This document shows positions 5,308 to 19,356 of a DNA stretch of 64,000 nt, in pieces. Positions within the stretch are counted from its first letter, which is position 1. The number at the start of each line of letters is the position of its first letter. The translations under genes and the position numbers were made by a program. The notes beneath the pieces were generated by a model that worked only from the letters and a program-made list of their open reading frames with translations, searched no databases and had not been told where the DNA came from. The stretch is from Halorubrum ezzemoulense DSM 17463 (GTDB taxonomy: Archaea > Halobacteriota > Halobacteria > Halobacteriales > Haloferacaceae): contig NZ_NEDJ01000010.1 in NCBI RefSeq assembly GCF_002114285.1, forward strand, positions 1 through 64,000, in the 5' to 3' direction.

Positions 5308-6960
5308 TCAGCGGTCGACCTCTCCCATGATCGTGTCGAGACTGCCGAGCGCGGCGATCAGGTCCGGTATCGACTCCCCCTCGGCCATCTCCGGCAGCGT
5401 CTGGAGGTTCGAGAACGAGGGCCCGCGGATCTTGAACCGCGCCGGCTTGTCGGTGCCGTCGGCGCGGATGTAGATGCCGAGTTCGCCCTTGGCGCCCTCG
5501 ACGGCCCGGTAGATCTCCGTGTCGTCGGCCGGCCGGATCGTCCGCGGGACGTTCGCCTGAACGGTCCGCTCGTCCTCGGGCCAGTCTTCGAGCAGGTCGA
5601 CGCACTGCTCGATGATCTTCGCGGACTCCTCGACTTCGCCCATCCGGACGAGCAGGCGACTGTAGTTGTCGCAGCCGTCTTCGGTCACCACATCCCAGTC
5701 GAGCTCGTCGTAGTAGCCGTACGGGTCGTCGCGGCGGAGGTCGTAGTCGACCCCCGAGCCGCGGACGACGGGGCCGGTCGCGCCGTAGCTCTTCGCGACC
5801 TCCGGCGGGAGGGTTCCCGTGTCCACTGTGCGGAGCTGGAGGATCTCGTTCCGGGTCAGGAGGTCGTGGTACTCCTCGATGCGGCGCGGGAGGCCGTCGA
5901 GGTACTCGCGGACGCTCCGCAGGAACTCCTCACGGGGTTCGGGGAGGTCCCACGCGACGCCGCCGAGCCGGAAGTAGTTGAACATCAGCCGCTGGCCCGT
6001 CAGGTCCTCGACGATGTCCTGAACGCGCTCGCGCTCCTGTATGGCGTACATGAACGTCGCCGTGAAGTCGCCGATCACGTCGAGCGCGTACGCGCCCATC
6101 GCCAGCATGTGCGAGAGGATCCGGCTGAACTCCGCGGCCATGGTGCGGACGACGTGCGCGTACTCTGGCACCTCGATGTCGGCGAGGTCCTCGGCGACCC
6201 GGGCGTACGCCCACTCGTTGAGCAGCCCCGCGCCGCCCCAGTCCCAGCGGTCGGGGTACGGCATGATCTGGTGACGGTACGTCCCGGACTGCGCCATCTG
6301 CTCCTCGCAGCGGTGGATGTAGCCGATGTCGGGCTCCACGCCGACGACCGTTTCGCCGTCGAGGGTGACCTGGAGGTGTAAGACGCCGTGGGTCGCGGGG
6401 TGGTGCGGCCCGATGTTGAGCAGCATGGTGTCGCTGCCGGTCGCGGTCGACGACCCGGGTTCGATCGGCTCGTTCTCGGAGAGGGCGGCGATCTGCGGCT
6501 GATCCTTATCGTAGTCCATCGACAGGGGGTGCCCCTGCCACGTCTCGGGGAGCAGGATCCGGCGGAGGTCCGGGTGGTCGTCGTACTCGATCCCGACGAG
6601 GTCGTACGCCTCGCGCTCGTGCCAGTCCGCGGTGCGGAACACGGACGCGGCGGACTCCGAGACCGGGTCCTCCTTGTCGGTGGGAACCACGACGCTGAGC
6701 TCTCGGGTCGGGTCGTCGTAGGAGCGCAGGTGGTAGATCGACTCGTACCGGTTCTCGTACTCCTGTGCCGTGACGCAGGCGAGGTGGTCGTACCCCGCCT
6801 CGTCTCGCAGCGTGGAGAGCGCCTCCTGAACCGCGTCGGGTCGGACCCTCGCCGCGGGGGCGTTCAGGTGGCTCTCACGCCCCGTGATCAGCCCGCGGAC
6901 GGACGAAAACGCGTCCGCCGTCTCCTCGTCGTCGCGCTCGCGCAGCAGCTCTGTCGACAT
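5308..6960 (-). CDS. nuoCD: Fused NADH dehydrogenase-like subunits C and D
   Basis: 550-residue fusion of respiratory complex I subunits. Residues about 30-150 are NuoC-like (30-kDa subunit; DWHEREAYDLVGIEYDDHPD and RRILLPETW are its hallmark). Residues about 180-550 are NuoD-like (49-kDa subunit), beginning with NIGPHHPATHGVLHL, which contains the quinone-site His, and ending with the conserved MGEVDR tail. The TYRHQIMPYPDRWDW stretch covers the quinone-site Tyr region, with Trp where Tyr is commoner. Both domains look complete. None of the other complex I genes (A, B, H-N) flank it, although the gene usually sits between nuoB and nuoH in haloarchaea. Divergent from a Bat-type regulator over a shared TATA element. 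Confidence 0.9.
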   Translation of the reverse strand: MSTELLRERDDEETADAFSSVRGLITGRESHLNAPAARVRPDAVQEALSTLRDEAGYDHLACVTAQEYENRYESIYHLRSYDDPTRELSVVVPTDKEDPVSESAASVFRTADWHEREAYDLVGIEYDDHPDLRRILLPETWQGHPLSMDYDKDQPQIAALSENEPIEPGSSTATGSDTMLLNIGPHHPATHGVLHLQVTLDGETVVGVEPDIGYIHRCEEQMAQSGTYRHQIMPYPDRWDWGGAGLLNEWAYARVAEDLADIEVPEYAHVVRTMAAEFSRILSHMLAMGAYALDVIGDFTATFMYAIQERERVQDIVEDLTGQRLMFNYFRLGGVAWDLPEPREEFLRSVREYLDGLPRRIEEYHDLLTRNEILQLRTVDTGTLPPEVAKSYGATGPVVRGSGVDYDLRRDDPYGYYDELDWDVVTEDGCDNYSRLLVRMGEVEESAKIIEQCVDLLEDWPEDERTVQANVPRTIRPADDTEIYRAVEGAKGELGIYIRADGTDKPARFKIRGPSFSNLQTLPEMAEGESIPDLIAALGSLDTIMGEVDR

Positions 6961-14659: not shown

Positions 14660-16771
14660 CTAACCGACGTACCGCCGCCTCGTCGTGCGCTCGCCGTCGG
14701 GGGCGTACACGGTGACGACCTCGCCCTCGTCGTCGAGCGCGGGCGCGTCGCGGCCGAGGTAGTGGTCCGTCGCCGTGTCCGCGCCGGCGCCGACGTGAAC
14801 CGTCAGGGTCTCCTCGGGCCCGAGCGTCGCGTCCGGGAGGTCGTCGCGCTGGCCGTCGAGGTCGATGACGTACCCGGTCAGGTCGATCGGCTCCGCCGCG
14901 GCGTTCCGCAGGGTCACCGACTCGTCGAGCGCGTCGCCGGTCGCGTCGCCGGCGTCACCGTTAGCTCCCGCATCGCCGCCGCTCCCCGGGCCCGCGTCGA
15001 CGGCCTCGATCACCAGTCCGTCGGGGTTCGCCTCGGCCGCGAACGCCGTGATGTCCGCCAGCGTGTACCCGTCGGTCGCCGTCGGCTGCGGGAGGCTCGG
15101 CTCCCAGCCGTCGGGCGCGGCGTTGGGGTAGGCGGTCTCGTCAGCCTCGATCAGCCCGATCAGTGTCTCGGCGACGATCCGACTGCCGACCGCGCCGAGT
15201 CGCTCGCCGTCCTGCTGGTAGTCCGCCTCGGCGAGCACGTAGTACCAGAGCGGCGAGTCGGGGTCTGCGCCGCGACCGTGCGCCCGCAGCGTCTCCATGA
15301 TCGCCGATTCGTCGCCGAACGCCTCGTTGCGGATCGGATCGTACCCCATCCGCGCGGCGACGTCCTGTCCGGAGGCCAGGCCGAGCGCCTTCCCGCGCCG
15401 GAGGTTCCGGACGGCGAGCGAGGAGTCCCCGGCGATCGGGAGGTTGAACAACGTCGGCGCGAGGAGGGGCTCGATCTTCCGCGAGGGCTGGTAGTCGCCG
15501 TCGCCGGTGTCGAGCAGCCGCGACCAGTCGACGACGAGGTCGCTCGGGACCGGTCGGCCGCCGCGGAGGTTCCGCCCGTCCCCGGGGCCGGTCGGGAACA
15601 GCGGCACCTCGCCGACCTCGTCGTTGACGTCGAACGCGTGTCGGATCATGCTGTGGCCGAAGCGGTACGCGGCGCCTCCGAACTCGACCGGGATCGCCGG
15701 CGTGCGCCCCGGCGGCACGAAGTGTTGTCGGCCCCGCTCCTCGATGTCGGCCAGGACGTAGCGGTCGCAGATCCGGGGGAGGAAGTCGCGTCGCACGACC
15801 CACTGGTAGTGCCACCTGACGAGTCGCTGCGCGGCTTCAAGGACGGACTCGCCGTCCTCGACGAGCGACGATCCGGGACCGTGGAGGTGGTCGACGACGC
15901 GGTTGTGGAAGTTCACGAAGGCGAGCTCGAGCTGCGAGACGACGACGTTCTCGTCGTTCCGCGGGTCGCCGATCAGCGCGAGCCCCTGCTCGTTCCGCTG
16001 GAGGTCCGTCCCCGGGAGCCCCGAGAGCCCGCCGCCGTCCGCGGCGTCCGGCGCGACCGCGTCGCCGGTGAGAAGCTTTCGCTCGTCCGTCTCGTGGTCG
16101 TAGAGGAACGGCGCCGCCTCCGCGTTCGTCCGGTACAGCGAGTCGAGGTCGAGCGCCGGCGTCCGGAAGTTCCGCAGCGCGGCCGGGTCGTTGCGCCGGT
16201 CGATGTCGGAGGTCGGGTCGAACGTGAGGTCGTGGTCGACGAACTGACCGAAGATGCCGTAGCCGGCCGGCGTCTCGGCGTCCCCGACCGGGTCGTCGGG
16301 CGACTCCATCATCGGCGCCCCCGCCTCGCCGTCGGCGCCGCCGAGCGTCCGGAGTAACTCCGCGTCGCGGTCGTACGGGTCCAGCTCGGGGAACTGCGTG
16401 TGGAACCGGTGGCTCCGGACCGGGCCCGCGGCCGTACACGCGGCCTCGTTCATCCCGCGGTGGTCGCTCCCGCCGTGGAGGGCGACGCTGCGCGCGTTCA
16501 CCGAGAGGTGGAGCGCCGCCTCGCTCCCGTCCGGTCGCCGCCGCCGTCGGACCGGCTCCTCGGTCCCGCCCCGCGCGGGGTTCCGCACGGTGAACGAGAC
16601 CTTGTCGAGGTCGGCGCCGCCGTCCGCTTCGAGGACGAAGTTCCCGTCGTCCTCGGTCATCCAGTGGCCGATGCGGTCGCCGTCCTCCCGTTCGCCGATG
16701 ACTATCCGCCCCGCCAGCGGCCGGGAATCGCTGTCGACGACGCGACATGTTATCTTGTCGGTAGCACCCAT
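14660..16771 (-). CDS. Animal-type haem peroxidase with C-terminal lamin-tail-like domain
   Basis: 703-residue member of the animal haem peroxidase (peroxidase-cyclooxygenase) superfamily. An N-terminal beta-rich region covers residues 1-100. The catalytic region starts near 110; the distal-side motif GQFVDHDLTF places the distal His near 180, and RNEQGLALIGDPRNDEN followed by FVNFHNRVVDHL near 270-310 is family-typical. The proximal His lies in AYRFGHSMIRHAF near 373. The last ~85 residues (SVTLRNAAAEPIDLTGYVI onward) look like a lamin-tail beta-sandwich, joined by a Gly/Asp/Ala linker. No signal peptide is seen. The ATG at 16771 was chosen over an in-frame GTG at 16786 because of the TATA-like element just upstream. 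Confidence 0.88.
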   Translation of the reverse strand: MGATDKITCRVVDSDSRPLAGRIVIGEREDGDRIGHWMTEDDGNFVLEADGGADLDKVSFTVRNPARGGTEEPVRRRRRPDGSEAALHLSVNARSVALHGGSDHRGMNEAACTAAGPVRSHRFHTQFPELDPYDRDAELLRTLGGADGEAGAPMMESPDDPVGDAETPAGYGIFGQFVDHDLTFDPTSDIDRRNDPAALRNFRTPALDLDSLYRTNAEAAPFLYDHETDERKLLTGDAVAPDAADGGGLSGLPGTDLQRNEQGLALIGDPRNDENVVVSQLELAFVNFHNRVVDHLHGPGSSLVEDGESVLEAAQRLVRWHYQWVVRRDFLPRICDRYVLADIEERGRQHFVPPGRTPAIPVEFGGAAYRFGHSMIRHAFDVNDEVGEVPLFPTGPGDGRNLRGGRPVPSDLVVDWSRLLDTGDGDYQPSRKIEPLLAPTLFNLPIAGDSSLAVRNLRRGKALGLASGQDVAARMGYDPIRNEAFGDESAIMETLRAHGRGADPDSPLWYYVLAEADYQQDGERLGAVGSRIVAETLIGLIEADETAYPNAAPDGWEPSLPQPTATDGYTLADITAFAAEANPDGLVIEAVDAGPGSGGDAGANGDAGDATGDALDESVTLRNAAAEPIDLTGYVIDLDGQRDDLPDATLGPEETLTVHVGAGADTATDHYLGRDAPALDDEGEVVTVYAPDGERTTRRRYVG

Positions 16772-16788
16772 GGGTTGATGTGACACAC

Positions 16789-16796: not shown

Positions 16797-16951
16797 CAAA
16801 AAATTATCTAAATGAACTTTCAACTTGTTTCCCGGATTATATTGCTGGCTTCGCTCCCGTCGGTCGGGCGACGCGCGCTTGACGGGCCTCCGCACGCCAG
16901 CCGTTCGCACGCGACCCGAACATTCGAGTCCACCCGAGACGAACTGCCGTC

Positions 16952-17905: not shown

Positions 17906-18037
17906 ACGCTTCGTCGAACACCGATAGGCTCGCTCCGCTCTCCTATCGAGTTCGACTTCGGCTTACGCTTCGTCGAACACCGATAGGCTCGCTCCGCTCT
18001 CCTATCGAGTTCGACTTCGGCTTACGCTTCGTCGAAC
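17906..18037. repeat. 59-bp tandem duplication carrying the 3' end of the dehydratase gene
   Basis: Two full 59-bp copies start at 17906 and 17965, and a third begins at 18024 as the actual gene end. Each starts acgcttcgtcgaaca, which on the minus strand is the last codons (Leu-Phe-Asp-Glu-Ala-stop) of the dehydratase. Each copy holds the inverted repeat GATAGG...CCTATC. A more diverged copy of the gene end (ggcttacgcctcgtcaaac) occurs at 17802-17820, next to a 7-bp-arm hairpin GCAGCGC/GCGCTGC (17824-17840). The rest of the gap shows no gene. Confidence 0.85.
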
Positions 18038-19260
18038 AACGTCTCGCCCTCGACCATGTGGTCCTCGACGGCGTCCATGTCGAGCGTGACGCCGAGGCCC
18101 GGCTCTTCCGGCACCTCGATGTACCCGTCCTCGATCACACTCTCCTCGACGAGGTCCTCCCACCAGCCGAGCTCGTAGGAGTGGTACTCGATGGCGAGCG
18201 AGTTCGGGATGGCGGCGCCGACGTGCGCCGCGGCCATCGTCGCGACCGGCGAGGCGACGTTGTGCATCGCGACCGGCACGTAGTACTGGTTCGCGATGTC
18301 GGCGATCTTGCGGGTCTCGCGCATGCCGCCGACCTTCGGCAGGTCGGGCGCGACGATGTCGACCGCCTGGTTCTCGATGAGCCGGCGGAGCTCGGTGACG
18401 CGGTAGCGGTTTTCGCCGACCGCGATCGGCGTGACCGTGTTCTTCGTGACTTCCTCCTGGACTTCGAGGTTCTCCGGCGGGACGGGGTCTTCGAGCCACC
18501 ACACGTCGTACTCCTCGATGGCGTCCGCGAGGCGCTTCGCGGAGCCGCCCGAGAACGTCCAGTGGCAGTCAAAGGAGACGTCCGCCTTGTCCTTCACGCG
18601 CTCGGTGACCTTCTCGACGATCTCCGCCTTGTGGCGGATTTCGCCGGGGCGGAGGTGGCGGTTCGCGCGGTCCTTCTCGTGGCCCGAGGGGACGTCGAGG
18701 TCGAACTTCAGCGCGTCGTAGCCGAGTTCGTCGACGACGCGCTCGGCCTCGTCGGCGCAGGCCTCGGGGTCCGCCTCGTCCTCGGTGTGACAGTCGCAGT
18801 AGACGCGCATCTCGTCGCGGTACTTCCCCCCGAGCAGCTGGTAGGCGGGCACGTCGAGAATCTTGCCGGCGAGGTCGTGGAGCGCGACTTCGATGCCGGA
18901 GATGGCCGTGACCGTGACGCCCTCGACGGAGCCCTCGCCGGACATCTTCTGGATCAGGTGCTCGTAGAGGCGGTCGATGTCGAGCGGGTTCTCGCCGATC
19001 ACGAACGGCTTCATGCGCTCGATCAGCTCCGGGACGCCGGCGCCCCAGTACGCTTCGCCGGTGCCGACCACGCCTGCGTCGGTGTAGACGCGGACGAGCG
19101 TCCACGGGAAGTTCCCGTCGACCATCGTCGTCTGGACGTCCGTGATCTCGACGTTGCGATCGCCGCCGCGCGTCCCCGTGGTCCCCATCGTCTCGGCGGA
19201 GAGCTCCCGCATCGTGTACTCCGCGTTCGGGTCGTGGAGCGACTCGTAGTTCCGGCTCAT
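18022..19260 (-). CDS. gnaD: Sugar-acid dehydratase of the enolase superfamily (GnaD-like)
   Basis: 412-residue mandelate racemase/muconate lactonising family enzyme. The substrate is probably gluconate or a related aldonate, dehydrated to a 2-keto-3-deoxy acid in the haloarchaeal semi-phosphorylative Entner-Doudoroff route. The N-terminus MSRNYESLHDPNAEYTMREL closely matches what I recall of haloarchaeal GnaD. Active-site features are ALKFDLDV near residue 190, FDCHWTF near 238, WWLEDPVPPE near 262 and VGENRYRV near 285, giving the Asp/Glu/Glu metal ligands, and AMHNVASP near 335 with the catalytic-type His. Substrate specificity among gluconate, galactonate and xylonate cannot be fixed from sequence. 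The 3' end is tandemly duplicated downstream. Confidence 0.85.
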   Translation of the reverse strand: MSRNYESLHDPNAEYTMRELSAETMGTTGTRGGDRNVEITDVQTTMVDGNFPWTLVRVYTDAGVVGTGEAYWGAGVPELIERMKPFVIGENPLDIDRLYEHLIQKMSGEGSVEGVTVTAISGIEVALHDLAGKILDVPAYQLLGGKYRDEMRVYCDCHTEDEADPEACADEAERVVDELGYDALKFDLDVPSGHEKDRANRHLRPGEIRHKAEIVEKVTERVKDKADVSFDCHWTFSGGSAKRLADAIEEYDVWWLEDPVPPENLEVQEEVTKNTVTPIAVGENRYRVTELRRLIENQAVDIVAPDLPKVGGMRETRKIADIANQYYVPVAMHNVASPVATMAAAHVGAAIPNSLAIEYHSYELGWWEDLVEESVIEDGYIEVPEEPGLGVTLDMDAVEDHMVEGETLFDEA

Positions 19261-19283
19261 ACCCCCCGATTTATTCGGAACAG

Positions 19284-19297
19284 GGTAAACGTTTACC
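19284..19297. promoter_or_regulatory. Perfect 14-bp palindrome upstream of the sugar-acid dehydratase
   Basis: GGTAAAC followed directly by GTTTACC, centred about 30 bp before the dehydratase ATG at 19260. It occupies the place where TBP/TFB should bind for a leaderless transcript, so a protein bound here could block or recruit initiation. The divergent TRAM gene starts at 19357, so the site lies between the two genes. Confidence 0.6.
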
Positions 19298-19356
19298 ATC
19301 GGGCGTGGGACGCCTGAACAGGTGGCTTTTCATCCCCGTGCGCGCAACGGGTGGGC

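What the first reader, a model, noticed from the sequence alone, without database searches (positions are those of the whole stretch)
14660..16771. Haem peroxidase joined to a lamin-tail-like domain in an archaeon
Animal-type haem peroxidases are rare in archaea. This one has both haem His motifs intact and carries an N-terminal beta region and a C-terminal lamin-tail-like beta-sandwich, yet has no visible signal peptide. The lamin-tail domain usually occurs on exported or nuclear proteins, so its role on a possibly cytoplasmic oxidase is unclear. The AT-rich upstream region could mark acquisition by transfer.
Basis: partly seen in the sequence, partly recalled or inferred. Interest (0 to 1): 0.6.

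Follow-up and report, generated by a model that had tools for sequence, protein, structure and literature searches.

The report
Archaeal haem peroxidase with lamin-tail domain
A salt-loving archaeon carries a gene for an animal-type haem peroxidase of bacterial ancestry, fused once within the haloarchaea to a lamin-tail-like domain; it is a rare, intact, probably working enzyme in a new domain arrangement of a known enzyme family.

Summary
ORF 14660-16771(-), 703 aa, matches An_peroxidase (2.9e-16). Its C-terminus is a true lamin-tail domain: Pfam 2.3e-7 here, 5.4e-14 in an orthologue, and the AF2 model's top 15 PDB hits are all lamin Ig domains. Distal His180, proximal His373, Gln176, Arg271, Asn456 and both haem-ester residues (Asp179, Glu274) are all present. 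The gene is rare: 22 of 391 haloarchaeal genomes, 11 of 52 in its genus. The haloarchaeal enzymes are probably one clade among bacterial 'heme peroxidase family proteins'. However, lack of a signal peptide is normal for this whole cytoplasmic-looking subfamily. The AT-rich upstream stretch is a conserved promoter-like element, not a transfer scar, and codon usage is native. Tree and architecture indicate one LTD fusion inside haloarchaea: 15 of 22 members carry it, no bacterial relative scanned does. Closely related Halorubrum species lack the gene at an exact empty MFS-PHP site, and one keeps a decayed remnant there, so the patchiness includes loss. Most likely function: a cytoplasmic H2O2-dependent haem peroxidase whose beta domains tether or assemble it. 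Substrate and LTD partner are unknown. Verdict: new domain architecture of a known superfamily, moderately interesting.

The parts
14660..16771 (-). Haem peroxidase - LTD gene, 703 aa, ATG start, single copy of the family in this genome
   Evidence: purifying selection over all domains among 11 Halorubrum sequences
16496..16759 (-). N-terminal beta domain (aa 5-92), carboxypeptidase-regulatory/transthyretin-like
   Evidence: AF2 strands 6-91; CarboxypepD_reg in 7 of 23 relatives, best 1.3e-4, not in the window copy itself
15026..16408 (-). Animal-type haem peroxidase core (aa 122-582)
   Evidence: Pfam PF03098; AF2 model, PDB hits 8s6c, MPO, LPO
16214..16249 (-). Distal haem / calcium motif GQFVDHDLTFDP: Gln176, Asp179 (predicted haem ester), His180, Asp185
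   Evidence: invariant in 61 relatives; aligned to WGQFLDHDLDL of 8s6c
15947..15970 (-). Catalytic Arg271 and Glu274 (predicted haem ester), motif GDPRNDEN
   Evidence: invariant in 61 relatives; Arg-x-x-Glu spacing as Arg-233/Glu-236 of DdPoxA (PMC5787809)
15644..15667 (-). Proximal haem ligand His373, motif YRFGHSMI
   Evidence: invariant in 61 relatives; aligned to YRVGHTML of 8s6c
15404..15406 (-). Asn456, predicted hydrogen-bond partner of the proximal His
   Evidence: invariant in 61 relatives
14663..15022 (-). Linker and lamin-tail domain (aa 584-703; beta-sandwich core about 613-703)
16798..16824 (-). Conserved AT-rich promoter-like element GTTGAAAGTTCATTTAGATAATTTTTT, starting 53 nt before the ATG; contains TGAA-AG-TTCA palindrome and TATA-like ATTTA
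   Evidence: only exact copy of its first 16 nt in the genome
16832..16848 (-). Second conserved upstream block CCAGCAATATAATCCGG, also found before the relocated copy in G013

Best explanation
The gene encodes a cytoplasmic, H2O2-dependent haem peroxidase of the peroxidase-cyclooxygenase superfamily. Haem b is held by His373 and probably by two ester bonds (Asp179, Glu274). H2O2 is cleaved by His180, Gln176 and Arg271 to form compound I, which oxidises a small substrate (halide, thiocyanate or an organic donor; not determined). The core was probably acquired once by haloarchaea from bacteria. A resident haloarchaeal lamin-tail domain was then fused to its C-terminus once. In Halorubrum the enzyme also has an N-terminal transthyretin-like beta domain. 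The two beta domains most likely tether the enzyme to a cellular partner or help it assemble. Shown: domains, catalytic residues, constraint, distribution. Inferred: activity, ester bonds, location, LTD role, donor.
For: Domains by Pfam, profile and fold. All catalytic and both ester-forming residues invariant in 61 relatives, matching the set described for LPO and DdPoxA (PMC5787809). Purifying selection: dN/dS core 0.12-0.32, LTD 0.16-0.60, N-domain 0.36-0.58. No signal or membrane segment. Archaeal members form one clade, SH-aLRT 99, with four long bacterial branches left out; with them included one archaeal clade is not rejected, p-AU 0.54. LTD needs one gain on the tree. No LTD in 44 bacterial relatives. 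The peroxidase LTDs share the GxGxDTxxDxYxG stretch with LTDs of resident haloarchaeal proteins. Conserved promoter-like element.
Against: No biochemical data. The whole-protein AF2 superposition on peroxidases is loose (TM 0.42-0.55, rmsd about 8), and haem was not modelled. The N-domain has no Pfam match in the window copy. The bacterial donor is unresolved, and Salinibacter (long branch) falls inside or beside the archaeal clade, so one clean transfer is not proved. No conserved operon hints at a substrate.
Confidence: 0.72

Rival explanations
1. The protein is exported or surface-attached by an unrecognised route, and the LTD works outside the cell as in the lipobox metallo-beta-lactamase/LTD proteins.
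For: Many haloarchaeal LTDs sit on lipobox proteins (Hlac_1867 and Hvo_1477 in PMC5118699); many characterised animal-type peroxidases are secreted.
Against: No signal peptide, lipobox or membrane segment from either start; the first in-frame stop lies just upstream (open frame 711 codons), so no hidden leader exists; bacterial relatives also start without an evident leader.
Confidence: 0.1
2. The core is a haem-binding or oxygenase-like protein (cyclooxygenase/dioxygenase type) rather than a peroxidase acting on small donors.
For: Fatty-acid alpha-dioxygenases and COX-2 appear lower in the fold search.
Against: MPO, LPO and the cyanobacterial peroxidase 8s6c score best; both ester-forming acids and the Arg-x-x-Glu motif of halide-oxidising peroxidases are invariant.
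Confidence: 0.08
3. The gene is a recent horizontal arrival in this strain, marked by the AT-rich upstream stretch.
For: Patchy presence (11 of 52 genus genomes) and empty sites in close relatives.
Against: Native GC3 and codon usage; conserved promoter-like element in all 12 Halorubrum copies aligned; same neighbourhood in most carriers and a decayed remnant at the same site in G028 point to older presence with losses.
Confidence: 0.1

Closest known systems
Bacterial 'heme peroxidase family protein', probably the short-peroxicin group (Family 5 of the peroxidase-cyclooxygenase superfamily, PMC4420034)
   Same: Core aa 99-583 aligns at about 33-47% identity, same catalytic residues, same lack of an evident leader
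   Different: Bacterial proteins end after the core; none of 44 scanned has an LTD or the N-terminal beta domain
8s6c, Cyanobacterium TDX16 peroxidase; myeloperoxidase and lactoperoxidase
   Same: Best sequence and fold matches in the PDB; distal His/Gln/Arg, Glu and proximal His aligned
   Different: 15-20% identity; the mammalian ones are secreted and glycosylated; no LTD
Lamin-tail domain (PF00932) proteins of haloarchaea: lipobox metallo-beta-lactamase-LTD (ComA/Hlac_1867 type) and a 298-aa protein without a signal
   Same: LTD 31-37% identical to the window's LTD
   Different: Partner is a hydrolase domain or none, not a peroxidase; most are exported lipoproteins
Haloarchaeal 'heme peroxidase'/chlorite dismutase-ABM fusion (family 1776, HVO_1871; PMC5992828)
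   Same: A bacterial haem-enzyme domain made chimeric in haloarchaea
   Different: Belongs to the chlorite dismutase superfamily, an unrelated fold, and is essential and widespread

Membership tests
Peroxidase-cyclooxygenase superfamily (PF03098) | Profile match above curated cut-off | tested here: met
   59.6 bits against 25
Peroxidase-cyclooxygenase superfamily (PF03098) | Distal His, Gln and catalytic Arg; proximal His with Asn | tested here: met
   Q176, H180, R271, H373, N456 invariant in 61 relatives
Peroxidase-cyclooxygenase superfamily (PF03098) | Mainly helical peroxidase fold | tested here: met
   Foldseek 1.1e-15 to 8s6c, MPO and LPO next; superposition loose
Peroxidase-cyclooxygenase superfamily (PF03098) | Covalent haem esters and H2O2-driven oxidation | not testable with these tools
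   Both acids present (D179, E274); bonds and activity need the protein
Short bacterial peroxicins (Family 5) | Falls in that clade of the published phylogeny | not tested
   Reference sequences were not held; length and lack of an evident leader in the bacterial relatives fit
Lamin-tail domain (PF00932) | Profile match | tested here: met
   E 2.3e-7 but 31.6 bits, below 34.3, for the window copy; orthologues 36.4 and 52.9 bits
Lamin-tail domain (PF00932) | Lamin-type Ig fold | tested here: met
   Top 15 PDB hits of the model are lamins, TM about 0.6-0.7
CarboxypepD_reg / transthyretin-like domain | Profile match above cut-off | tested here: not met
   No hit in the window copy; weak hits in 7 relatives; only beta-rich structure is shown
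Exported LTD proteins | Signal peptide, Tat motif or lipobox | tested here: not met
   None from 16771 or 16786

The most novel reading that the evidence does not exclude
A cytoplasmic myeloperoxidase-like enzyme that works in molar salt, is held by its lamin-tail domain on an intracellular structure (chromosome, membrane or another protein), and oxidises halide or protein targets there under control of its own dedicated promoter element.
Probability: 0.12. Interest if true: 0.7.

Novelty: new variant of a known kind. Interest (0 to 1): 0.42.

Why it matters
It documents an archaeal branch of the superfamily that includes myeloperoxidase, with its active site intact and with a lamin-tail fusion that appears to have happened once within the haloarchaea. 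The presence/absence pattern at one locus (full gene, exact empty site, decayed remnant) makes a clean natural comparison. The enzyme would be a candidate salt-stable peroxidase, and the fusion gives a testable handle on what prokaryotic lamin-tail domains do inside cells. No paper describing this family in archaea was found in the library searched.

Tried and rejected
NCBIfam gave no family for the whole protein. PADLOC gave only a weak LTD hit, so a defence role has no support. No conserved operon partner was found outside Halorubrum. The conserved upstream 16-mer has no other exact copy in the genome; three other sites with 3 mismatches against 2 for the reversed control, so no regulon could be named. 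Plasmid search found only bacterial homologues covering the core; viral contigs gave 34 core-only relatives and no LTD fusion. AT-rich upstream as transfer scar: rejected. One haloarchaeal 'heme peroxidase' fusion in the literature turned out to be the unrelated chlorite dismutase type. No annotated public record of a Halorubrum region could be opened.

Full report
OBSERVATION. The minus-strand ORF 14660-16771 (703 aa; GTG alternative at 16786) is as described. Pfam finds An_peroxidase (2.9e-16) and LTD (2.3e-7, slightly below the curated cut-off). Orthologues push the LTD over the cut-off (52.9 bits in the Halorubrum alkaliphilum copy L019, 36.4 in L128). An LTD alignment finds human lamin A/C and B1 in the PDB. 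The AF2 model of the C-terminal 124 residues (pLDDT 84) matches lamin Ig domains in all of its first 15 hits. The full-length model (pLDDT 84, pTM 0.80) shows three parts: an N-terminal beta domain (strands 6-91), a helical core, and the C-terminal beta-sandwich. Its best PDB matches are a cyanobacterial peroxidase (8s6c), myeloperoxidase and lactoperoxidase.

ACTIVE SITE. In an alignment of 61 relatives, Gln176, Asp179, His180, Arg271, Glu274, His373 and Asn456 are invariant. They align with 8s6c and correspond to the residues given for the peroxidases compared in PMC5787809: distal His, Gln, Arg; Glu three residues after Arg forming one haem ester; the Asp before the distal His forming a second in LPO-type enzymes. 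That paper links two esters to a more positive redox potential. Two esters are therefore predicted here; this is inference.

LOCATION. There is no signal or transmembrane segment, and the open frame ends a few codons above the GTG (711 codons), so no leader is hidden upstream. The 470-600 aa bacterial relatives also begin without an evident leader (judged by eye from N-termini whose starts were picked mechanically). The absence of a signal is thus normal for this subfamily. LTDs in haloarchaea occur both on lipobox proteins (L010, L012, L013, L132) and on a protein without a signal (L011).

DISTRIBUTION AND ORIGIN. An_peroxidase occurs in 22 of 391 haloarchaeal genomes in 8 of 86 genera, in 6 of 393 genomes in a phylum-wide draw, all of them among the haloarchaeal carriers already found, and in 11 of 52 genomes of the window's genus, which the named relatives indicate to be Halorubrum. 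Architectures: all Halorubrum copies carry N-domain + core + LTD; G113, G129, G255 and G318 carry core + LTD; G077, G112, G160, G205, G273, G308 and G360 carry an N-terminal extension + core without LTD. On the core tree without four long bacterial branches, the archaea are one clade (SH-aLRT 99), LTD needs one change and the N-domain two. With the long branches included, holding the archaea together is not rejected (p-AU 0.54; likelihood slightly higher). A plasmid-borne Salinibacter ruber homologue (no LTD) joins the archaeal group on a long branch, hinting at exchange among halophiles. The bacterial donor is unresolved. None of 44 bacterial relatives has an LTD. The peroxidase LTDs share sequence features with LTDs of resident haloarchaeal proteins, so fusion inside haloarchaea is the simplest account.

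LOCUS. In most Halorubrum carriers the gene lies between an MFS transporter and a PHP-domain gene. In twelve Halorubrum genomes without it these two genes are 83-139 bp apart, an exact empty site. G028 keeps, at this site, the same upstream element and start, a frameshift after about residue 44, and no core: a decayed gene. In G013, G020 and G009 the gene lies beside the neighbouring enolase-superfamily gene instead. Old presence with loss and local movement explains this better than a recent arrival.

UPSTREAM REGION. The AT-rich stretch is the most AT-rich upstream region among 45 window genes (0.83 in 30 nt against 0.60 for the next), while the gene's GC3 and codon usage are ordinary. Aligned upstream sequences of 12 Halorubrum copies share GTTGAAAGTTCATTTA..., 53 nt before the start, largely even in the relocated copies. 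It is a promoter-like element, not foreign sequence. No regulon could be found.

CONSTRAINT. dN/dS against ten Halorubrum orthologues is 0.12-0.32 (core), 0.16-0.60 (LTD) and 0.36-0.58 (N-domain): all three parts are kept by selection, the core most strongly.

FUNCTION. Best explanation: a cytoplasmic H2O2-dependent haem peroxidase with beta appendages for tethering or assembly. Shown: domains, residues, constraint, distribution. Inferred: activity, haem esters, substrate class, location, role of the LTD. Published suggestions for prokaryotic LTDs are membrane association (PMC5118699) and DNA binding in halophilic nucleases (PMC4486849); neither was tested here.

VERDICT. A real and rare new domain architecture of a known enzyme superfamily; interest moderate.

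Noticed in passing
L113 (G028) 5749-6290; L114 (G027) 5969-6073: Decayed remnants: G028 keeps promoter, start and the first ~100 residues with a frameshift at the MFS-PHP site; G027 has an isolated fragment of the LTD next to a gene with a helix-turn-helix-like C-terminus elsewhere.
   Followed up: partly
L156 4007-5452 (Salinibacter ruber plasmid pSR66): A plasmid-borne peroxidase of the hyperhalophilic bacterium Salinibacter is up to 45% identical to haloarchaeal copies and falls with them on a long branch, hinting at gene exchange among halophiles.
   Followed up: partly
window aa 335 (15767-15769): Cys335 is invariant in all 23 archaeal rows and present in Salinibacter, while the bacterial consensus has Val there; possible halophile-specific feature of the core.
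   Followed up: no
L017 4987-5776; L141 4069-5141: The PHP gene in Halorubrum tebenquichense and the MFS gene in G025 appear frameshifted.
   Followed up: no
L020 and L089: Contigs titled Bifidobacterium breve carry peroxidases closest to soil Actinomycetota (Solirubrobacteraceae, Svornostia); the title is probably wrong or the bin contaminated.
   Followed up: no
window 18022-19299: An enolase-superfamily (mandelate racemase-like) gene stays next to or one gene from the peroxidase in every Halorubrum carrier examined.
   Followed up: partly
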